From a virus: DNA of 20,906 nt. The translations under genes and the position numbers were made by a program. The notes beneath the pieces are model-generated. The model was not told the origin of the DNA. It saw only the letters and a program-made list of their open reading frames with translations, and did not search any database. Where the stretch lies: the IMG/VR virus record IMGVR_UViG_3300009177_000787, positions 1-20,906 of that record; one strand, given 5' to 3'. Of this stretch, positions 1 to 19,678 are shown in pieces. Numbering within the stretch: position 1 is the stretch's first letter; every line of letters starts with the position of its first letter.

Positions 1-2031
1 CGCGCCCTGACGATGCAGTGGTTCACGCCCGACACCGTCGCCTATACCGCCCAGTTCGGCTCCGTTCAGCCGGATCTGGAAACGGTCCTGCGGTTACTGG
101 ACCAGCGGACGCGGTGGAAAACCAGCAACGTCCCTGTCACCGTGTCGACCCCGGGTCCGCCGCCGCCGGGAAGCGTCACCGACGCGACTATCGCCCCGCC
201 GGGATTAAGCGCCAGTTCCATTCAAAGCGTCAACGCGACCACCATCATCGGCCAGATTCAAGCGGGCCAGATCGCCAGCGTCAACGCGGGTTCCATCGTC
301 GGGGTTCTGTCGGCGTCTCAGATCGGGGCGGTCAATGCCAGTACGATTCAGGGGACCATCACAGCGGGCCAAATCGGCAGCGTCAACGCGACCACCATCA
401 ACGGGGTCATCGTGTCGTCCCAGCTAGCGGACCAGATCATCGACAACCTGTCGAAGTACGCGACCGCGTTAACCCCGGTGAAGATCATTCGGACCAGTGA
501 TCCCTGGCCGCCGTCACCGCCGCTTCCGAACAAAAATTACCCGCCGAACAGTTACTTCTACTTCGAACAGAACGGCCACTTCTACCGCATCACAGCAGAC
601 GGCGGGTCCTGGACGGACGCCGGGACGAACCCCGATAGCCTGACGGGGCTTCTGAGTTTCTACACCATCGGGCGGCTGTCGGCCCAGAACATCACCGGCT
701 TAATTCTGGCCGCGCAAATTCAGTCGATCACGGCGGGCCAGATCACTGGGTCGATCCAGGCGGGCCAGATCGGGGGCGTGAACGCGTCGACCATCGTCGG
801 CCAGATCACCGCCGCACAGATTCTGAGCGTCAACGCGAACGCAATCCAGGGGACGATCACCGCCGATAAAATCACGTCCATCGCCGCCAACCAGATCACC
901 GGGAGCTTGACCGCCAGCCAGATCGGCAGTATCAACGCGGCGACCATCACCATCGGTCTGGTCGGGGACAACCAGATCAGCGGGCTGAACGGCGGGAAGA
1001 TTACGGCGGGGTCGATCACCAGTGCTCAACTGAATTCCTACGCGGTCGATATCGGGGACCCGACCGGGGTTTCCGCGATGCCCGCACGAATCCGGGTATG
1101 GTGGGGCGGGGCGGTCATCGGCCAGATTGGTTACCTGAACGAGGTTGGCGCGGGGGCGTACGGCGGCTGGTTCAAGGTCTTCGGGGCGGGCGGCACTTCG
1201 TGGTCGAACGCGAAACTGTACACCGACACCAGCGGGAACGTCTGGGTCCGCGATGTGGACTTCAATATCAGCGGCCAAATCTATACCAGCCCGACGACCC
1301 TGGACGCCACGTATTCCACGTTGGCCTGGGTCAATAAATCGGGGACCGATCAGGCGTCCTTCGTGTCCCGGGGAATGGTCCTGTACTACAACAACAGCAA
1401 AGTCGGCTCCATCGTCCGTTCCCCCAGCGGCGGCTGGATGGATATCGAGTTTAACGCGGGGGCGGCGTACATTCTGTTGTCGGGGAACACCGGGGTCCGC
1501 TCCGACCAGGGCTATTCGGTCGGCGGGACAAAGGTTATCAACTCGTCGGGCCAGTTTACCGGGACCGTCACGGGGACGGTAACGGGGACCGTCAATACCA
1601 GCGGGACCGTGAACGCAAGCGGCGGGTATACCGGGGGAACCTTCAGCGGGTCGTCCGTCAACGTATCCGGTAGCTGTAACGCCAGCGGCGGCTACACCGG
1701 GGGGACGTTCAGCGGTTCAGGGGTCAACGTAAACGGGACCGTTAACGCGGCGGGCGGCCACACGGGCGGCTCCTTCACCGGGGCCGGGGTCAGTTGCCCC
1801 AGTTACGGAATCTCGTGCGGGTCCCTGACCACCAACGGGGGAAACCTAAACTGCGGTCCGTTCGCCGCCAGTGGGGCGGGGTCCGTCGGCGGGAGTTTCA
1901 CGGCGGGCAGTTTCATTCTGAGCGGGTTCGGGACCGCTGTAACCGAAACCGTCGGCCCTATCGCCTTGAGCGGCGGCGGGGTCGTCTATCTGTACTTTAA
2001 ATCCGGCCTGTATTACGGCCACACGAACTAA
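1..2031 (+). CDS. Phage tail fibre / host-specificity protein with repeats (5'-partial)
   Basis: The frame is open to the window edge and the first ATG (nt 13) has no ribosome-binding site, so the gene probably starts upstream. Two blocks (about nt 200-440 and 690-1030) carry a degenerate repeat of roughly 17-18 residues of the form QIxSVNAxTIxGxITA, typical of elongated trimeric phage fibres. They flank an aromatic-rich insert (YFYFEQNGHFYRITADGG). A compact middle part is followed by a Gly/Ser/Thr-rich tail with three 22-residue tandem repeats (nt 1612-1809) and a hydrophobic end. The product should sit at the tail tip or baseplate and contact the host surface. The family is recognised from repeat style and from the second fibre gene downstream; the receptor cannot be inferred. 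It is the first of four rightward tail-region genes. Confidence 0.8.
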   Translation, partial: RALTMQWFTPDTVAYTAQFGSVQPDLETVLRLLDQRTRWKTSNVPVTVSTPGPPPPGSVTDATIAPPGLSASSIQSVNATTIIGQIQAGQIASVNAGSIVGVLSASQIGAVNASTIQGTITAGQIGSVNATTINGVIVSSQLADQIIDNLSKYATALTPVKIIRTSDPWPPSPPLPNKNYPPNSYFYFEQNGHFYRITADGGSWTDAGTNPDSLTGLLSFYTIGRLSAQNITGLILAAQIQSITAGQITGSIQAGQIGGVNASTIVGQITAAQILSVNANAIQGTITADKITSIAANQITGSLTASQIGSINAATITIGLVGDNQISGLNGGKITAGSITSAQLNSYAVDIGDPTGVSAMPARIRVWWGGAVIGQIGYLNEVGAGAYGGWFKVFGAGGTSWSNAKLYTDTSGNVWVRDVDFNISGQIYTSPTTLDATYSTLAWVNKSGTDQASFVSRGMVLYYNNSKVGSIVRSPSGGWMDIEFNAGAAYILLSGNTGVRSDQGYSVGGTKVINSSGQFTGTVTGTVTGTVNTSGTVNASGGYTGGTFSGSSVNVSGSCNASGGYTGGTFSGSGVNVNGTVNAAGGHTGGSFTGAGVSCPSYGISCGSLTTNGGNLNCGPFAASGAGSVGGSFTAGSFILSGFGTAVTETVGPIALSGGGVVYLYFKSGLYYGHTN
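1612..1809 (+). repeat. Three 66-bp tandem repeats in the fibre gene
   Basis: Three in-frame copies start at nt 1612, 1678 and 1744. Each encodes 22 residues around NASGGYTGGTFSG followed by a variable VNV-type segment. They are preceded by a GTVTGTVTGTVN stretch. Such Gly-rich repeats are common in phage adhesin tips and are prone to copy-number change by recombination. Confidence 0.75.
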
Positions 2032-5858: not shown

Positions 5859-6134
5859 ATGCCGCGAATCACGCCGATAGATAACGAGAAATTCCCCCGG
5901 GTAAATACCCGAATTACCAGGGAAGCCCTGGAGCGGTTGAATTACGCCTGTGAAGTTCGCGAACGTACGGAGCCGCGAATCTGCCCGCAGGGAACAATCC
6001 TGACCGAACTACTGATGAAGCACCTGGAGCCGACCCCGGCCCAACGTTCGGCGGCGGACGCCCCACCGGCCCCGGCGAAAAAGAAAAAACCGAAGTCCAG
6101 TAAACGCACCGAACCGAAAGCGATCAGTGCATGA
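5859..6134 (+). CDS. Ribbon-helix-helix-like small basic protein
   Basis: I chose the ATG at 5859 because GGAGAA lies 9 nt upstream; the frame extends 24 codons further but those are Arg-rich and unconvincing. The 91-residue product has a strand (RVNTRIT, residues 14-20), a helix (21-34) and, after a short turn, a second helix (TILTELLMKHL, 47-56), the order seen in ribbon-helix-helix DNA-binding proteins. A Lys/Pro-rich basic tail (72-88) follows. It is the first gene after the early promoter, where phages often place a regulator. Two extra Cys residues (31 and 42) are unusual for the fold. A regulator role is inferred. Confidence 0.55.
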   Translation: MPRITPIDNEKFPRVNTRITREALERLNYACEVRERTEPRICPQGTILTELLMKHLEPTPAQRSAADAPPAPAKKKKPKSSKRTEPKAISA

Positions 6135-6334
6135 CGCCCGCCGAACGGGTCGCGTTGTTGGTCCAGGAGGACGTCGAACTGACCCGGCGCGACGCCGCCG
6201 CGCACCCGTGCGATCACTGTAAGGCCGCGTTGGGTTCGGACTACTTCGACACGAACTGGTTGTGCCCGGGGTGCCGGGAGATTCTGTGGGAACGGCTGAA
6301 GTGGGAGCCGTACCGCGAGAAGGAGGTCAAGTGA
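6131..6334 (+). CDS. Small zinc-ribbon protein
   Basis: This 67-residue protein overlaps the previous gene by ATGA. CDHC (residues 27-30) and CPGC (45-48), 14 residues apart, would bind one zinc ion in a ribbon. The N-terminal helix and the WxRLKWEPYREKEVK tail are charged. Its stop overlaps the GTG start of the exonuclease gene, so translation is probably coupled. Partner and target are unknown. Confidence 0.65.
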   Translation: MTPAERVALLVQEDVELTRRDAAAHPCDHCKAALGSDYFDTNWLCPGCREILWERLKWEPYREKEVK

Positions 6335-7329
6335 TAGATCACGAAATACGCAAGACGGGGATCGGCGGTAGCGAAGTCGCCGCCCTGTACGGTGAAGACG
6401 AATTTAAAACCGCGTTCGGGGTCTGGGCCAGCAAAAAGGGCGGCCTGGAGCGGACCCCTGACGCGGTCAATTCGCGGATGATGATCGGGAAGGTCCTGGA
6501 ACCGGCGGTCCTCCAGCTGTACCAGCGGATGAAACCGGAGAAGCAGGTCGTCTATACGGACGTCACGTTCCAGCACCCGTCGCGGCCCTTCCAGGTCTAT
6601 TCCCCGGACGCCCTGATCGTCGGGGAAAAACGCGGGGTCGAGGTCAAGGTCGTTTTCTGGGACCAGCGCGGCAAGTGGGGCTGGGACCCCGATTCGATTC
6701 CGACCCGGGTCCTGTTCCAGTGCTGGTGGTATATGGCCGCGATGGGCTACGACACGTGGGACGTGGTCGCGTTGATTGGCGAAGACCTTCCACGAATCTA
6801 CACCATCGACCGGCTGATTCCCGCCGAAGAAAAGGCCATGTTGGATTACGTGGAGTCCTGGTGGCGGCGGTTCATTGAAGGGGACGAAGAGCCGCCCCTG
6901 GACAACAGCGAAGACGCGGCCCGCCTTGTCGCCCAACGGTATCCCCGCCATAAGCGGCCCGACATGCGGGAAGCGACGGAAGCGGAAACCCTGATCCTGG
7001 AAAAGTACGTGACCCTGCGGATTCTCCAGCGGGAACTGAAGAGCGAACAGACCGGCCTGGAAACCCTGATCAAGAACGCCATCGGGGACCGGGAAGGTCT
7101 GACCTGGGGGGACCAGTACGCGTTCACGTGGCGACGGTCGAAGGACGGAACGGAGATCAATTACGAAGCGATGGCGCTGACCCTGCTCCACAATTTCGTG
7201 AAGGACCCCGCCGACCGGCTGGTGGTCGAATCCCTGCACACCGTCCCGAAGGAAGGATCGCGGCGGATTCGGCTGAATCACCCGGAGTTTAACCGGACCA
7301 CGCGGAAAAACCTGGAGGTGTCCGCATGA
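6331..7329 (+). CDS. YqaJ-family viral recombinase exonuclease
   Basis: The start is GTG at 6331, overlapping the previous stop (GTGA) with AGGAGG 5 nt upstream; an ATG 69 nt earlier lies inside the upstream gene and lacks support. The 332-residue protein shows the lambda-exonuclease/YqaJ fold signature: GIGGSEVAALYG (10-21), GKVLEP with Glu57, SPDAL with Asp93, VEVKV with Glu104 and Lys106, and a helix starting FQCWWYM with Gln130. The family degrades one strand of dsDNA ends from 5' to 3', using metal ions, to expose ssDNA for annealing. The RecT gene follows directly with a 4-bp overlap, the usual two-component phage recombination pair. The C-terminal third is helical (residues about 220-260). 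Confidence 0.92.
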   Translation: MIDHEIRKTGIGGSEVAALYGEDEFKTAFGVWASKKGGLERTPDAVNSRMMIGKVLEPAVLQLYQRMKPEKQVVYTDVTFQHPSRPFQVYSPDALIVGEKRGVEVKVVFWDQRGKWGWDPDSIPTRVLFQCWWYMAAMGYDTWDVVALIGEDLPRIYTIDRLIPAEEKAMLDYVESWWRRFIEGDEEPPLDNSEDAARLVAQRYPRHKRPDMREATEAETLILEKYVTLRILQRELKSEQTGLETLIKNAIGDREGLTWGDQYAFTWRRSKDGTEINYEAMALTLLHNFVKDPADRLVVESLHTVPKEGSRRIRLNHPEFNRTTRKNLEVSA

Positions 7330-8267
7330 CCCCTGAACCCGAACAACCGCCGACCCAGACCGACGAAATCGACCGGACCGCCGTCAGCGATGTAGCGGTT
7401 CGGATCGCCAAACAACCAGGGACCGTCCGCGACGTTCTCCGGGGGGAACGGTTCCTTCGGGAACTGGCCGCCACCAAGCTGGTCACTCCCGAACGGTTCG
7501 TCCGTATCGCGTTGACGACCATGATGCGGATACCCGAACTGGCCGACTGTTCCCGGGAAAGTTTATTCCAGTGTCTGCTCGACCTGTCCAGTTACGGCCT
7601 GGAACCCGACGGACGCCGCGCCCACCTGATCCCGTTTCGAAACCGGAAAATGTGCAAGTGCGGCCACCGCCAGGATAGCCATCGCGGCCAGGACTGCACG
7701 TTGTGTGACTGCCGGGAACGCCGCGAACTACTGGAATGTACCCTGATCATCGACTACAAGGGGCTGGCCGAACTGGTCCGCCGGTCGGGCGATGTCAGCT
7801 ACATGCACGCCGATGTCGTATACGAAGGGGACGAATGGGACGCCAGTTTCGGGACCAACGCCCACTTGGTGCACAAGATGGGTGCGGTTCGCGGCGGCAA
7901 GCCGCTGTGGTATTACTCCTTCGTCCGGTTTAAGGACGGGACCGAAGATTTCCGCATCCTGCGGCCAGCGGACGTGGAGAAGGTTCGCCGCCGGTCGAAG
8001 TCCCCGGACGTCGGACCCTGGCAGACCGATTACGACGCGATGGGGATTAAGACCGCGTTCCGCCAACATGCCAAGTGGTTGCCCCTATCCCCCGAAGTCC
8101 GCGACAAGATCGAACGGGAAGATGCCATCGACATCGCCCCGGACGACCAGGGACCCGTCGACGAAGTCCCCGAACAGCCAGCGGTGCGGACGGCCCGGGT
8201 TCGCGGAAAGATCCTGAACCCGCCCGCCCTACCGCCCCAGGCCGAACCAGCGGAGGAGACGTTATGA
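7326..8267 (+). CDS. recT: RecT-family ssDNA-annealing protein with zinc-like insert
   Basis: This 313-residue protein has RecT hallmarks: FLRELAATKLVTPERFVRIALTTMMR (43-68, N-terminal helices), CLLDLSSYGLEPDGRRAHLIPF (83-104), IIDYKGLAELVRRSG (141-155), VVYEGDEW (164-171), and an acidic Pro-rich tail. The family anneals complementary single strands after exonuclease resection. It overlaps the YqaJ gene by ATGA. Between LIPF and the IIDYKGL motif, where RecT proteins usually have a short link, there is an insert with Cys110, Cys112, His114, His119, Cys124, Cys127 and Cys129, arranged like a small zinc knuckle of the CxCGH...H...CxxCxC type. The core motifs remain intact on both sides, so the protein should be functional. 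Confidence 0.9.
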   Translation: MTPEPEQPPTQTDEIDRTAVSDVAVRIAKQPGTVRDVLRGERFLRELAATKLVTPERFVRIALTTMMRIPELADCSRESLFQCLLDLSSYGLEPDGRRAHLIPFRNRKMCKCGHRQDSHRGQDCTLCDCRERRELLECTLIIDYKGLAELVRRSGDVSYMHADVVYEGDEWDASFGTNAHLVHKMGAVRGGKPLWYYSFVRFKDGTEDFRILRPADVEKVRRRSKSPDVGPWQTDYDAMGIKTAFRQHAKWLPLSPEVRDKIEREDAIDIAPDDQGPVDEVPEQPAVRTARVRGKILNPPALPPQAEPAEETL

Positions 8268-8527
8268 ACCGCGTCCAGAAAAAGTGGCCGGCGACCCCGT
8301 CGGAATGGCAGGAAGCGGTCGACCTGTCGTGCGGTCTTCGTGCCCTGGCCAACTGCAAGATGTATGGCCTATTGGCGAACGGTCCTGAAATCGACCACGA
8401 CCGTTGCGACCAGTTAATCGCGGAAGGGAAACGCCTGGGGATCGGCCCTTCGAAGCCGATTCCTGAACTGGCCGCGTACGTGGTGATGGCGTATAACCGA
8501 ACGACCGAAGAGGATCAGACCCAATGA
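8264..8527 (+). CDS. Conserved small phage protein, function unknown
   Basis: This 87-residue protein has GGAGGAG 5 nt before its ATG and overlaps the RecT gene by ATGA. The pattern WPATPSEWQEAVDLS, then YGLLANGPEIDHDRCDQLIAEGKRLGI, matches a family I recall from many phage early regions and prophages, without known function. It looks all-helical, with no catalytic motif or membrane segment. Its place right after RecT suggests a link to recombination or replication, which is inference. Confidence 0.65.
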   Translation: MNRVQKKWPATPSEWQEAVDLSCGLRALANCKMYGLLANGPEIDHDRCDQLIAEGKRLGIGPSKPIPELAAYVVMAYNRTTEEDQTQ

Positions 8528-9237
8528 CCCGCGCCATCGTCGACGATGATTTCCGCAACTGGCCCCCGCGACCGGAACCGCTCGAGGATTGCCCCGTACG
8601 GCCCGCGTTGAAGGACATTCCAATCCGCATGATGGACCTGCCGACCGACCGGGGGTTTCCGGTCCCCTGGTTCGTCGACTGGATCGACGGGACCCCGGAG
8701 TTCCGGCTAATGAACGGAGAGAAGTGGAAACGGGCGGTCCGCGAAAAACTGTGCTGGGTCTGCGGGAAGAAACTGGGGGCGTACTTGTGTTTCGTCCTGG
8801 GTCCCATGTGCGGGATTACCCGGACCACGTCGGAACCCGCGTGCCACCGGGAATGCGCCAGATGGTCCGCCCGGTTCTGTCCGTTCCTATCCCGGCCCCA
8901 CATGATGCGGCGGGGTCAGGAAGAACTGGCGGCGGCGGGGGCACAAAGTATGGGCGGGACCGGCTTATCGCGGAACCCCGGGGTCGTTCTGCTGTGGTCC
9001 GCCCGCGACTACAAAGTATTCCGGCCCGAAGGGGGCGGCATGTTGATCCAGGTCGGGGACCCGCTCGAGGTGGAATGGTGGGCCGAAGGGCGGAAAGCGA
9101 CCAGGGACGAAGTCCAGGAAAGTATCCGCACCGGGTTGCCCAGTCTTCAGGAAGTGGCGCGGCAGGAAGACGGGGCGATGGAAGATTTGAGTCGCCGGGT
9201 CGCGGCGTTCGAACAGTATCTGCCGCAGGAAGTGTGA
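8524..9237 (+). CDS. Cys-rich phage protein, paralogue of the gene at 18261
   Basis: This 237-residue protein contains LPTDRGFPVPWFVDW (39-53), DGTPEFRLMN (55-64), CWVCG (77-81), FVLGPMC (90-96), ACHRECARW (106-114) and FCPFLSRP (118-125). Cys77/80, Cys96, Cys107/His108/Cys111 and Cys119 could hold one or two zinc ions. The family is widespread in temperate phages as a protein of unknown role. The C-terminal half (KVFRPEGGGMLIQVGDP, VEWWAEGRKATRDEV) is also characteristic. A second, diverged member lies at 18261-18863. It overlaps the previous gene by ATGA. Confidence 0.7.
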   Translation: MTRAIVDDDFRNWPPRPEPLEDCPVRPALKDIPIRMMDLPTDRGFPVPWFVDWIDGTPEFRLMNGEKWKRAVREKLCWVCGKKLGAYLCFVLGPMCGITRTTSEPACHRECARWSARFCPFLSRPHMMRRGQEELAAAGAQSMGGTGLSRNPGVVLLWSARDYKVFRPEGGGMLIQVGDPLEVEWWAEGRKATRDEVQESIRTGLPSLQEVARQEDGAMEDLSRRVAAFEQYLPQEV

Positions 9238-11861: not shown

Positions 11862-12112
11862 CCCACACCGACCGCCAGGGGTCCCCAGGTCGGGCCGAAT
11901 TCCTGGAACGCCACTATACCCTGGCCGAACTGGCGACGGCGTGGCACGTGTCCAGGGCGACCCTGGTCCAATGGTTCAGGGACGAACCCGGGGTCATCAG
12001 ATACGGGACTGGAAAGCTGAAAAAGGGACGCCAACGAATTCATGTTTCGTTACGCGTCCCTGAAAGTGTCGCACGCCGGGTTTATAAGACCCGGACCGGA
12101 CGGGAGATTTAA
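11858..12112 (+). CDS. Helix-turn-helix protein, possible excisionase
   Basis: This 84-residue protein contains YTLAELATAWHVSRATLVQWFRDEPGVIRYG (20-50), a MerR/excisionase-like helix-turn-helix followed by a wing, then a basic stretch (KLKKGRQR) and SLRVPESVARRV. GGAGG lies about 7 nt upstream of the ATG, which overlaps the previous stop. It is the last gene of the rightward operon. Its stop overlaps that of the leftward integrase gene by 4 bp. Xis proteins commonly sit beside integrase genes, so a recombination-directionality role is plausible; a transcriptional regulator of similar fold is the alternative. Confidence 0.65.
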   Translation: MTHTDRQGSPGRAEFLERHYTLAELATAWHVSRATLVQWFRDEPGVIRYGTGKLKKGRQRIHVSLRVPESVARRVYKTRTGREI

Positions 12113-13323
12113 CTGGCGGCGGCGATGGGGAACCGATACGCCAGAACCCGGGTCGCTTTCGACATTCGTTCGCGATATCCTGGCACGAGTTTCATATAAT
12201 GTTTCTGCGTAATCTTCACGTCGGAGTGACCCAGTGCCTGGGACACCGTGAAGATATCGGTTCCGCCAACCAACATGTTGATGGCGAAAGTATCGCGGAA
12301 TTTATGGCAGGTCCCCTTGATTCCCGCGACCGTCAGAACCCGCAGGACCAGTTCGGTCGCCGCCACGATTCGTTGTTTGTAGTGCGGCATCAGGTCGGAG
12401 AATTCTTTGTCCCCGTCCCGCAGGGACTGACGGGCGTCCCGGTAATCGTCGACCGCGTCTGGTTGGAAGAAATAAACCCGGGTCTTCGGAAGTTTCTTCA
12501 GTGCGGCGATCGCCGGTTCCTGCAGTTCCGGCGGCAGACTGATCGGGCGGCGGGTCTTGATCACGAAGTAATCCATGTTCCCTTCGGGGGTCAAGTATTC
12601 CCGTTCGCAGAAGGTCGCGTCACTGATCCGCATCCCGGTAAACAACATCAGATAGATGATGGCCCGCGCCCGGTCGCGGACGTCGGCGGGCATCCGTTCG
12701 ACGGCGGCGAATATCTGGGTAATCTGGTCCGGGGTGAAGGGGGACCGGGTGGTTCCCGATTTCCGCGACCCGTTCAACAACGTACTGTCTTCGGTCGGCG
12801 TGAAGGTCAACCAGCGGCGGTCCCGGCGGCAGAAATTGAAGAATACCCGCAGGTGGGTCAGCCGACCCGCCGCCGTATTCCGTTTCCAGTCCCGGTTCGC
12901 GTCGAAGTACTGGCGGACGTGAGTCGCTTCCACGTCCCGCAACAGAACCAGTTCCTGTTTCGCGGCGAACTGGCCGAAGTGTTCGACCGCCCGCCGATAC
13001 AAGGTCTGGGAACTGGTCGACAGTCCCTTGCGGGTTTCCATGAATTCCTGGATCGCGTATTCCAGGGTTTCGGCCCCGGCTTTCCTGGTGACCAGGACCG
13101 GACCGGCGGCGTTGTGGCCGTCCTCCAGGTCGTTCTGTCGCCGTTCGGCGGTCGACAACGTCCTGGTGTCCAGGGACTGGCGGATAAACTGTCCGCGAAT
13201 CTTCCCGTGAATCCACAAGGGACACTCGCAGTTCGTCACGTTATTCGGCTGACCCGCGACAGGACAGGTCGCGGCGTGGCGGCGGTAAATGGTCGTTTTC
13301 GTTTGATTGGTTCGTTTGGTCAT
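12109..13323 (-). CDS. int: Tyrosine recombinase / phage integrase
   Basis: This 404-residue protein carries the full tyrosine-recombinase catalytic set: Arg232 in FTGMRISD, Lys256 in VIKTRRP, His340 and Arg343 in CHKFRDTF, His366 in LGHSD and the nucleophile Tyr376 in QKHYMK. A SAM-like core-binding domain occupies about residues 85-170. The N-terminus (residues 16-40) has His16, Cys20, Cys32 and Cys34 before PLWIHGKIRG and RQSLDTR, a zinc-like arm-binding segment of a type I associate with Acidobacteriota and Planctomycetota-type integrases. It catalyses site-specific integration and, with a helper, excision. It is the last gene of the leftward operon, starting with leader AAAGGAAACTGAAATG. 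No attP could be identified. Confidence 0.93.
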   Translation of the reverse strand: MTKRTNQTKTTIYRRHAATCPVAGQPNNVTNCECPLWIHGKIRGQFIRQSLDTRTLSTAERRQNDLEDGHNAAGPVLVTRKAGAETLEYAIQEFMETRKGLSTSSQTLYRRAVEHFGQFAAKQELVLLRDVEATHVRQYFDANRDWKRNTAAGRLTHLRVFFNFCRRDRRWLTFTPTEDSTLLNGSRKSGTTRSPFTPDQITQIFAAVERMPADVRDRARAIIYLMLFTGMRISDATFCEREYLTPEGNMDYFVIKTRRPISLPPELQEPAIAALKKLPKTRVYFFQPDAVDDYRDARQSLRDGDKEFSDLMPHYKQRIVAATELVLRVLTVAGIKGTCHKFRDTFAINMLVGGTDIFTVSQALGHSDVKITQKHYMKLVPGYRERMSKATRVLAYRFPIAAAS

Positions 13324-13344: not shown

Positions 13345-13719
13345 TTACTTCCACAAACATCCGCAGTCCGCCCGACCCCGAAAGGTCGGCGTACCGCACA
13401 CGGGACACGAATCGGCGGGTTCGGCGGCGACGGTCGGGGCGTCCGACGTTTCGACGACACCGGCCAGATCCTTCCAGTCCCAGGACCAGTAACTGTCGGT
13501 CCCCCAGGGTCCCGCGTGATCCCCCAGGTCCCGCAACTTCGCACCGAACAGGTCGAAGGTGCAGTAGTCCGAATGAAAGGACGTCGGACCGTCAATGTAC
13601 TCGACCCCGAACCAGTGATCCCGCACGTACGTCTGAAGGTCGGCCAGGGTCTTAAAGGTTCGGATGGCCGGGTTTCCCCGGCCCTCCTCGCGAACGTGAA
13701 TGGTGTAGGTCCGCTTCAT
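13345..13719 (-). CDS. Protein with C-terminal zinc ribbon, function unknown
   Basis: This 124-residue protein starts directly after the TAA of the upstream gene (TAAATG on the minus strand), with GGAGG 8 nt before the ATG. The N-terminal 90 residues are a compact, aromatic-rich domain (YTIHVREEG, DHWFGVEYIDGP, DSYWSWDWKDLAGVVE) that I do not recognise. A Pro/Ala linker leads to CPVCG (105-109) and a terminal CGC (118-120), which form a short zinc ribbon. It lies between the Lys-rich gene and the integrase. Confidence 0.65.
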   Translation of the reverse strand: MKRTYTIHVREEGRGNPAIRTFKTLADLQTYVRDHWFGVEYIDGPTSFHSDYCTFDLFGAKLRDLGDHAGPWGTDSYWSWDWKDLAGVVETSDAPTVAAEPADSCPVCGTPTFRGRADCGCLWK

Positions 13720-14848: not shown

Positions 14849-15061
14849 TTAGATACACTCGCAGTGGACAGTACGTCCGCAGATTTCGCAACCTTCGCCG
14901 TCGGCCAAAGTGCAATCACAGTCAGGTAATGGTTGTTCGCAGATTCCGCACACCGGGACCATTTGGTGTACTTTGTGGCGGGCCGTTTTCCCGCAGGACT
15001 TACACGGACTGTTGTAATAGTGGTAAGCGGTCGGCGGTTCGTAATGGTGGTTTGTGGTCAT
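14849..15061 (-). CDS. Small Cys-rich zinc protein
   Basis: This 70-residue protein contains ten Cys in pairs: Cys20/23, Cys38/41, Cys48/50, Cys58/61 and Cys67/69, after a Tyr/His-rich N-terminus (NHHYEPPTAYHYYNSP). It could bind two or more zinc ions, as in double zinc-ribbon adaptors. The start is fixed by the repeated leader AAAGGACTCTGAAATG. Its stop lies one base from the next ATG. Function unknown; protein or nucleic-acid binding is likely from the fold type. Confidence 0.7.
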   Translation of the reverse strand: MTTNHHYEPPTAYHYYNSPCKSCGKTARHKVHQMVPVCGICEQPLPDCDCTLADGEGCEICGRTVHCECI

Positions 15062-17932: not shown

Positions 17933-18264
17933 CGCGTTTATCCAACCGCCAATGGCCGATGTTGATGGCCCTTGCCGAAAACGGGACCGACCAGTACATG
18001 ACCATCGCCGAAGCGCAACGGTTCGACCAGCGTCCCTTCCGCAGTATGTTGATTCGGAAGTGGGCCGCGTACCGCCCGGGCCGGGGATTCTACATCACCC
18101 GGGAAGGAAAGGCCGCGATCGTCGAATTCCAGTCGACCGATATCACCAGGAAGAACCCGTCTCTGCCGCTGACCGCGTATTTCGACCCGACGGCGTATGG
18201 TCTGAAGACGCCGTCAAAAAAAGCGGCGGCGGTTCACGTGATGCCTAAACGGGGGGCCGCATGA
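17929..18264 (+). CDS. Probable winged-helix protein
   Basis: This 111-residue protein is linked by ATGA overlaps to both neighbours. LSNRQWPMLMALAENG, MTIAEAQRFDQRPFRSMLIRKW and RPGRGFYITREGKAAI (roughly residues 4-64) read as helix, helix, recognition helix and beta wing, typical of small phage winged-helix proteins. The remainder is a flexible, basic tail. A DNA-binding role is inferred from the fold pattern. Confidence 0.55.
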   Translation: MTRLSNRQWPMLMALAENGTDQYMTIAEAQRFDQRPFRSMLIRKWAAYRPGRGFYITREGKAAIVEFQSTDITRKNPSLPLTAYFDPTAYGLKTPSKKAAAVHVMPKRGAA

Positions 18265-18863
18265 CCGCCACAATGCCGCCCCGGATTGCCCGATTACCCC
18301 GCGACGAGCGGGGTTTTCCGATCCCGTGGAATATCGTTCGCGGCGACGATGGCACGCCGTTTTTCATCGTCAACGACGAGGTAAAGAATCTGGTCGCCCT
18401 TCACGACCGCCTGTGCCCGATCTGTGGCGACACGTTGGGCAAGCGGCGGTGGTTCGTCGGCGGACCAGGGTCGGCGTTCGACCCGCACGGGTGGTATCTG
18501 GACCTTCCCGGCCACCACGAATGCGTCACGTACGCCCTGGGGACGTGCCCGTACTTGGCGACCCCGAAGTATCTGCGTCACCGGGACACCATCCGCCATT
18601 CGGAGAAACTGCCCGCGTTGGCGCGGATGTTAGTCGACGAGACGGTGTCCCCGGACCGGCCCGACCTGTTCGTGGCGGTCGCCGCGTACCGGCTCGAGAT
18701 CCAGTTCCGGGGGATCGCCCCGCCGTACGTGCGGCCCGTCCGCCCGTTCCTGGATTACGAGTTCTGGCGTCACGGGGAACAGATTTCCTATGACGCCGCC
18801 CTGGTGATCCTTCGCAAGAAATTCGGGAAACACTGGGACCTGCCGGAAAAGGGGACGCCATGA
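18261..18863 (+). CDS. Cys-rich phage protein, paralogue of the gene at 8524
   Basis: This 200-residue protein shares with the 8524 product LPRDERGFPIPW (12-23), DGTPFFIVN (30-38), LCPICGDTLG (51-60), FVGGPG (65-70), HHECVTYALGTCPYLATPKYLR (85-106) and the general order of motifs. Cys52/55, His86/Cys88 and Cys96 would be the metal ligands. The C-terminal half differs completely (LDYEFWRHGEQISYDAALVILRKKFG). It overlaps neighbours by ATGA. Function unknown; two diverged copies in one phage suggest separate jobs or successive acquisitions. Confidence 0.68.
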   Translation: MTATMPPRIARLPRDERGFPIPWNIVRGDDGTPFFIVNDEVKNLVALHDRLCPICGDTLGKRRWFVGGPGSAFDPHGWYLDLPGHHECVTYALGTCPYLATPKYLRHRDTIRHSEKLPALARMLVDETVSPDRPDLFVAVAAYRLEIQFRGIAPPYVRPVRPFLDYEFWRHGEQISYDAALVILRKKFGKHWDLPEKGTP

Positions 18864-19174: not shown

Positions 19175-19340
19175 CATCGGCGTCACCGTTCACTTGTTCA
19201 GGGTCGACGCGGACGATTTCGCCAGCGGCGTCCTGGCGACTCAGATCGCGACGGCCCTTGAGGAAGTTCCAGGATTGTGCGGCTACGCGATTGTCGACGA
19301 CCTGGAAGAACTGGAAACAGTCGACGGGGGTGCGGCATGA
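19164..19340 (+). CDS. Small acidic protein, function unknown (GTG start)
   Basis: This 58-residue ORF starts at GTG with AGGGGG about 5 nt upstream and ends in an ATGA overlap with the next gene. The product (KVNIGVTVHLFRVDADDF, IATALEEVPGLCGYAIVDDLEELE) alternates strands and a helix like a small alpha/beta fold. Strong third-position G/C and the coupled junction support it. Confidence 0.6.
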   Translation: MKVNIGVTVHLFRVDADDFASGVLATQIATALEEVPGLCGYAIVDDLEELETVDGGAA

Positions 19341-19678
19341 CCGATATCACCCAACGCTGCCAGCACTGCGGCGGAACCCGCCAGGAACACGGTCGGACTT
19401 CACCGTTTCACTGTCGGACCCGGTTAACGGAGACGTACTGGGAACCCTGGACGGTCGAGCAATACGACGCGGCGGTCCGGGTCGGTTACGCGGCGACCAG
19501 TCGCGTCTGTAACTGCGGTTCTGGTCTGCCGTCCCGGGGTCTGTACGACGCCCGGGGGATCTACTGCGGGCGGGTCTGCGGCCAGTGCGAGACGCGGGTC
19601 AAGGGGTCGTTCCGCCCCGAAATCTTCACGGACCCGAACTACTACACCAGTGAGCCGGTCGAAGAGGACGATGACTGA
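19337..19678 (+). CDS. Conserved phage zinc protein with GSGLPSR motif
   Basis: This 113-residue protein has a first cluster RCQHCGGTRQEHG...FHC (Cys8, Cys11, His18, Cys26). A second follows: CNCGSGLPSRGLYDARGIYCGRVCGQC (58-84), then RPEIFTDPNYYTSEPVEED. The second module is a hallmark of a small zinc protein I know from many temperate phages and prophages, with no established function. The start ATG overlaps the previous stop. The acidic tail overlaps the next gene by 8 bp. Confidence 0.7.
   Translation: MTDITQRCQHCGGTRQEHGRTSPFHCRTRLTETYWEPWTVEQYDAAVRVGYAATSRVCNCGSGLPSRGLYDARGIYCGRVCGQCETRVKGSFRPEIFTDPNYYTSEPVEEDDD

What the first reader, a model, noticed from the sequence alone, without database searches (positions are those of the whole stretch)
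7653..7712. RecT annealase with a Cys/His zinc-knuckle-like insertion
Seven metal-ligand type residues (Cys110, Cys112, His114, His119, Cys124, Cys127, Cys129) sit between two conserved RecT core segments. RecT proteins I know lack such a module here. The CxCGH...H...CxxCxC pattern also occurs in stand-alone small proteins, suggesting domain insertion into an annealase, perhaps to bind DNA or recruit a partner.
Basis: partly seen in the sequence, partly recalled or inferred. Interest (0 to 1): 0.62.

Follow-up and report, generated by a model that had tools for sequence, protein, structure and literature searches.

The report
Phage RecT with metal-binding clamp hairpin
A DNA-annealing protein of an uncultured phage carries a small conserved, probably zinc-binding module on the tip of the exact hairpin that, in the solved relative, wedges between base pairs and clamps the newly annealed strand; no paper that we could search describes such a variant.

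Summary
The RecT gene (7326-8267, +) encodes C110, C112, H114, H119, C124, C127 and C129 at 7653-7712, between two RecT core segments. The same insert, same place and same length, is in RecTs of 13 IMG/VR contigs (nine lineages counting the window, 53-63% identical to it). All seven residues are invariant, although six of their seven codons change synonymously. A tenth lineage (L034) has a longer-spaced version. Relatives have 19-, 25- or 27-residue hairpins instead of 49/52. Aligned with the solved Listeria RecT, the insert lies at the tip of the beta1-beta2 hairpin, which wedges into DNA every fifth base pair and closes on the annealed duplex. A prediction (pLDDT 85) keeps the RecT fold with the insert capping that hairpin. 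The insert is one instance of a widespread Cys/His mini-module of phage proteins that reaches no Pfam or NCBIfam cut-off; it is not a canonical zinc knuckle. Most likely it is a structural zinc cap that extends and stiffens the clamp and helps hold the second strand; metal binding and this role are inferred. No RecT with the insert was found in about 85,000 genomes (one restrictive pattern).

The parts
7326..8267 (+). recT gene (RecT/Redbeta-type single-strand annealing protein, 313 aa) carrying the insert
   Evidence: PF03837, TIGR00616, phrog_148 matches; model matches 7ub2 LiRecT, Z 11.9
7620..7655 (+). beta1 strand of the wedge/clamp hairpin (residues 99-110), AHLIPFRNRKMC
   Evidence: DSSP of AlphaFold2 model mc0b49642772d; aligned to LiRecT A95-K101
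7650..7733 (+). inserted segment M109-L136, replacing a 4-residue turn of the 25-residue hairpin class (net 24 extra residues)
   Evidence: alignment A3 of 58 viral RecTs; hairpin length classes 19/25/27/49/52
7653..7712 (+). Cys/His module C110-C129, CxCGHx4Hx4CxxCxC, putative zinc site(s)
   Evidence: seven residues invariant in nine lineages, only synonymous codon changes
7719..7751 (+). beta2 strand of the hairpin (residues 132-142), RRELLECTLII
   Evidence: DSSP of model
6262..7329 (+). RecE/YqaJ-type exonuclease gene, partner of RecT; its stop overlaps the recT start (ATGA)
   Evidence: phrog_434 E 6.5e-55, PF09588 66.5 bits; homologue found upstream of every 49-residue-hairpin RecT

Best explanation
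This is a phage RecT annealase whose beta1-beta2 hairpin, the element that in LiRecT wedges between base pairs and closes over the annealed duplex, has been lengthened by a 24-residue Cys/His mini-module that most likely folds around zinc. The module should act as a rigid, basic cap on the clamp: on single-stranded DNA the N-lobe is mobile, and when the complementary strand pairs the hairpin closes and the cap sits on or beyond the outer, weakly held strand, adding contacts (or touching the neighbouring subunit's cap five base pairs away) and so stabilising the annealed intermediate. Shown here: the RecT family, the insertion site, conservation and purifying selection on the ligands, RecT fold prediction, conserved DNA-binding residues. 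Taken from the LiRecT structure paper: the role of the hairpin. Inferred: metal binding, contact with the outer strand, effect on annealing.
For: Family. Thirteen contig records with identical insert length and invariant ligands. Codon-level purifying selection. Profile alignment to LiRecT puts I102, P103, F104, R105 on V98, P99, Y100, K101 and Y144-K145 on Y110-K111, so the insert replaces the residues just after K101 at the hairpin tip. PMC9772228 reports that V98, Y100 and Q107 wedge into the duplex every fifth step, K101 contacts the outer strand, and the N-lobe with the hairpin is disordered on ssDNA and would clamp the duplex. AlphaFold2 with 58 sequences: pLDDT 85.3, beta1 99-110, beta2 132-142, insert pLDDT about 73-78 with a short helix; PDB match to LiRecT Z 11.9. 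Inner-strand contact residues Y144, K145, K242, R246 and K250 are conserved, so an active annealase is expected. Tip net charge +3 to +5 in Cys/His hairpins against a mean of +0.8 in the others, with [RK]G after H119 in all RecT copies. The same module recurs in unrelated phage proteins, as expected of a self-folding metal site.
Against: No metal, binding or annealing data. Ligand distances in the model could not be measured and AlphaFold2 has no metal. LiRecT hairpin mutants, including K101A/E and Y100A/E, had only mild effects, so the tip need not be critical. Counting thiolates and zinc would lower the apparent positive charge. Close relatives L035, L036 and L037 do without the insert, so it is dispensable for RecT function as such. 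Contact with the outer strand is an inference from another protein's structure.
Confidence: 0.5

Rival explanations
1. The module is a protein-docking site: it projects from the outside of the RecT filament and recruits a partner (the RecE-type exonuclease, a phage or host SSB, or the replisome).
For: [quoted passage not shown] All 49-residue-hairpin RecTs lie next to a homologue of the same RecE-type exonuclease, whereas most short-hairpin RecTs in the set do not.
Against: L036 and L056 have the exonuclease homologue but no Cys/His insert, and the association follows phylogeny. From general knowledge of Redbeta and RecT, partner contacts are usually made by the C-terminal region. No candidate partner motif was found.
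Confidence: 0.25
2. The Cys cluster is a redox or metal-level switch: zinc release or oxidation unfolds the cap and turns the annealase down.
For: Seven clustered thiol/imidazole ligands are chemically suited to it (general knowledge).
Against: The module recurs in many unrelated phage proteins, which points to a structural fold. No regulatory context was seen.
Confidence: 0.08
3. A tolerated loop decoration: the module folds with metal but its presence on the tip has little functional effect.
For: The hairpin tip varies in length across RecTs (19, 25, 27, 49, 52), and the insert is absent in three RecTs that group with the insert-bearing ones. LiRecT tip mutations are mild.
Against: Constant length and invariant ligands, G121 and a basic residue at 120 across nine lineages, with no non-synonymous ligand change.
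Confidence: 0.15

Closest known systems
LiRecT, RecT of Listeria innocua prophage A118 (PDB 7ub2, 7ubb; PMC9772228)
   Same: Same family and fold (Z 11.9), conserved inner-strand DNA contacts (Y110, K111, K206, R210, K215 equivalents), same beta1-beta2 hairpin strands
   Different: LiRecT has the 19-residue hairpin (AWIVPYKGRAQFQLGYKGY); here it is 49 residues with a Cys/His module at the tip
Other viral RecTs of the PF03837/phrog_148 type (alignment A3)
   Same: EPDGRRAHLIPF and DYKGLxELV core, DNA contact residues
   Different: 47 of 58 rows of A3 have 19-, 25- or 27-residue hairpins without the Cys/His module
PF24331 Phage_zn_bind_7 (mycobacterial phage zinc-binding domain)
   Same: Short Cys/His phage module; one stand-alone relative matches weakly (15.1 bits)
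   Different: Below its cut-off (27 bits); the RecT insert itself does not match it
Retroviral-type zinc knuckle (CX2CX4HX4C)
   Same: Small Cys/His element in a nucleic-acid-binding protein
   Different: Spacing here is CxCxHx4Hx4CxxCxC with seven ligands; no CX2CX4HX4C in the insert

Membership tests
RecT (PF03837) annealase | Profile match over curated cut-off | tested here: met
   PF03837 115.5 bits vs 24; TIGR00616 128.4 vs 52.65
RecT (PF03837) annealase | RecT/Redbeta fold (beta hairpin, central helices, beta sheet) | tested here: met
   AlphaFold2 model pLDDT 85.3; 7ub2 Z 11.9, 7ujl Z 7.9
RecT (PF03837) annealase | Inner-strand DNA contact residues | tested here: met
   Y144, K145, K242, R246, K250 correspond to LiRecT Y110, K111, K206, R210, K215; conserved in A3
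RecT (PF03837) annealase | Anneals complementary ssDNA | not testable with these tools
   needs purified protein
RecE/RecT two-gene recombination module | Adjacent exonuclease gene | tested here: met
   phrog_434/YqaJ gene 6262-7329 overlapping the recT start
Canonical zinc knuckle (CX2CX4HX4C) | Ligand spacing | tested here: not met
   C110-x-C112-x-H114-x4-H119-x4-C124-x2-C127-x-C129
Known Pfam or NCBIfam zinc domains | Profile match of the insert over cut-off | tested here: not met
   no match at E up to 1 for the window insert
Zinc-binding module | Binds metal | not testable with these tools
   inferred from invariant ligands only
Zinc-binding module | Ligands converge in space | tested here: inconclusive
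   ligands lie in one 20-residue hairpin tip of the model, pLDDT about 73-78, but no coordinates to measure

The most novel reading that the evidence does not exclude
A metal-dependent class of RecT annealases in which a binuclear zinc cap (two metals held by seven ligands, one of them bridging) on the wedge hairpin grips the incoming strand and so gates the step from loosely bound ssDNA to a locked duplex intermediate.
Probability: 0.25. Interest if true: 0.72.

Novelty: new variant of a known kind. Interest (0 to 1): 0.55.

Why it matters
How RecT/Redbeta/RAD52 annealases recognise and lock the second strand is not settled: in LiRecT the outer strand is barely contacted, and point mutations in the wedge hairpin do little. 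A natural family that puts a separate folded module on exactly this tip gives a removable handle on that step: deletion and chelation would change only the clamp tip. RecT proteins are also recombineering tools, so a metal-tunable or stiffer clamp would be of practical interest. The wider Cys/His module is itself a frequent, uncatalogued element of phage proteins.

Tried and rejected
C138 as an eighth ligand: invariant in the set but also present in most short-hairpin RecTs, so rejected as part of the module. Artefact or frameshift: rejected, same insert in 13 other contig records. Host assignment: not achieved; genome contigs gave no RecT relative and relatives cannot be drawn for a virus record. 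The four genome contigs pattern hits are not RecTs; one is a Streptomyces protein with the module, the other three gave no open reading frame that fits. That scan required TGC-GGN for Cys-Gly and a fixed His-His spacing, so it does not exclude bacterial copies. No insert-like match in cultured phages beyond weak partial hits. No solved structure matches the module by sequence; only the whole model was searched by fold, not the module alone. One origin or several: the tree needs three changes, and an AU test does not reject one clade (p 0.25 with L034, 0.43 without). Looking for more L034-type RecTs found only the same contig. A search of papers for the motif spelling found none, and the 10,280-structure survey of annealases mentions neither zinc nor insertions; most subscription papers are not in that library.

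Full report
Observation. The ORF at 7326-8267 (+) is a RecT annealase (PF03837 115.5 bits against a cut-off of 24, TIGR00616, phrog_148). It starts on the ATGA that ends a RecE/YqaJ-type exonuclease gene (6262-7329). The window is a whole 20,906-base IMG/VR record.

Is it more than chance? Pattern scans for the motif followed by the RecT YKG core returned 13 viral contigs, one of them near-identical to the window. Every one is a RecT with the block at the same place and with the same spacing. Ignoring near-copies, this makes nine lineages including the window, 53-63% identical to it over the whole protein. C110, C112, G113, H114, H119, G121, C124, C127 and C129 never vary. Six of the seven ligand codons differ synonymously between sequences, with no replacement at any of them, while the other insert residues change about three times as often as the flanking core (pN 0.35 against 0.11). 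This is purifying selection on the ligands. The pattern itself fixed most of these residues in advance, but L003 was found by protein similarity alone, and the wider similarity search did not turn up a RecT of this hairpin length with a broken ligand set.

What was inserted, and where. The wider scan gave 80 RecT loci. The segment from AHLIPF to YKGL is 19 residues in 49 loci, 25 in 13, 27 in one, 49 in the 13 Cys/His loci and 52 in L034; three loci could not be read in that run (L056 was read as 25). Against the 25-residue class the insert is 24 residues, replacing a turn between PFxNxK and VECxLI. L034 has VCANCNHPTDQHKGPICQIAGCPC: the same order of ligands with one and two extra residues between the outer Cys pairs, at the same register and with the same HKG. 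On a tree made without the insert columns, the Cys/His RecTs and L034 fall in one group of 14 (SH-aLRT 97) that also holds three RecTs without it (L035, L036, L037). This fits one gain and later losses, but the order is not firmly resolved.

Structure. AlphaFold2 on a 58-sequence alignment gave pLDDT 85.3 and pTM 0.76. Beta1 spans 99-110, beta2 132-142, and the insert forms the tip with a short helix (pLDDT about 73-78). The best solved match is LiRecT in its annealed-duplex complex (7ub2, Z 11.9 over 183 residues), then LiRecT with ssDNA and Redbeta. The profile alignment to LiRecT pairs I102-P103-F104-R105 with V98-P99-Y100-K101 and Y144-K145 with Y110-K111; LiRecT has the 19-residue hairpin. 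[quoted passage not shown] The insert therefore sits at the working tip of the clamp. Residues equivalent to LiRecT inner-strand contacts (Y110, K111, K206, R210, K215) are conserved, so the core should be a working annealase.

The module elsewhere. The bare pattern CxCGHx4Hx4CxxCxC occurs in 43 viral contigs, 30 of them not Cys/His-RecT loci: small ORFs, tails of larger proteins, a helicase-like protein, and a position inside a conserved protein in L111, L112, L124 and L126. The L034-like spacing is even commoner (the scan stopped at 120 contigs), mostly in small stand-alone ORFs. A rough estimate of my own from codon frequencies gives about one chance hit or fewer for such seven- or eight-residue patterns; invariance of the pattern residues in those sets is by construction and is not evidence. 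No Pfam or NCBIfam model reaches its cut-off, and no PDB sequence matches; the nearest is a sub-threshold match of one stand-alone relative to PF24331 Phage_zn_bind_7. Thus the RecT insert is one instance of a frequent, uncatalogued phage Cys/His mini-module.

Mechanism. Most likely (about 0.5) the module is a zinc-stabilised cap that lengthens and stiffens the clamp hairpin and adds contacts to the weakly held outer strand or to the next subunit's cap, stabilising the annealed intermediate. The tip carries +3 to +5 formal charge (cysteines taken as neutral) against a mean of +0.8 in hairpins without the insert, and a basic residue follows H119 in every RecT copy but in only a few of the other module copies. 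Against it: LiRecT tip mutants are mild, and relatives manage without the insert. The main rival is partner docking (0.25): every 49-residue-hairpin RecT lies next to a homologue of the same exonuclease, but L036 and L056 have the exonuclease and no insert. Neutral decoration (0.15) and a redox switch (0.08) remain.

Novelty. The protein is a RecT by every test that could be run. The hairpin insert is a new variant: it is not mentioned in the 10,280-structure survey of annealases (PMC11783212), and is absent from the solved structures and from the other RecTs examined here. It is confined, so far, to uncultured viruses; a single, rather strict scan of genome contigs found no bacterial copy.

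Noticed in passing
L101-L130 and L131-L249 (viral contigs), e.g. L102, L153, L195, L205: A frequent, uncatalogued Cys/His mini-module (CxCGHx4Hx4CxxCxC and CxxCxHx4Hx4Cx4CxC) in small stand-alone phage ORFs and inside larger proteins, sometimes in tandem (L102, L195) or on two long ORFs of one contig (L198, L205).
   Followed up: partly
L111, L112, L124, L126: The same module appears inside another conserved phage protein (flanked by HNFVGI/HNYVGL and GSGLN...LGADCALR), with relatives on several contigs: possibly a second case of insertion within a domain.
   Followed up: no
window 8524-9237 (+) and 18261-18863 (+): Two paralogous phage proteins of unknown function, each with a Cys-rich segment (29% identity, E 4e-17).
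   Followed up: partly
window 12109-13323 (-): Tyrosine integrase (phrog_1) with an N-terminal H..CP...CxCPxW segment, suggesting a temperate phage.
   Followed up: no
window 1602-1782: 66-bp tandem repeat (2.7 copies) in the ORF 13-2031, which also holds many 'AGQI/SVNAxxI' type repeats.
   Followed up: no
window 6131-6334 (+), 14849-15061 (-), 13345-13719 (-), 19277-19678 (+): Several other small Cys-rich ORFs (zinc-ribbon-like, all below Pfam cut-offs) in the same phage.
   Followed up: no
L034 5968-7224: RecT of 419 aa with the longer-spaced Cys/His version in the hairpin and a longer C-terminal tail; no homologue of the window's RecE was found beside it.
   Followed up: partly
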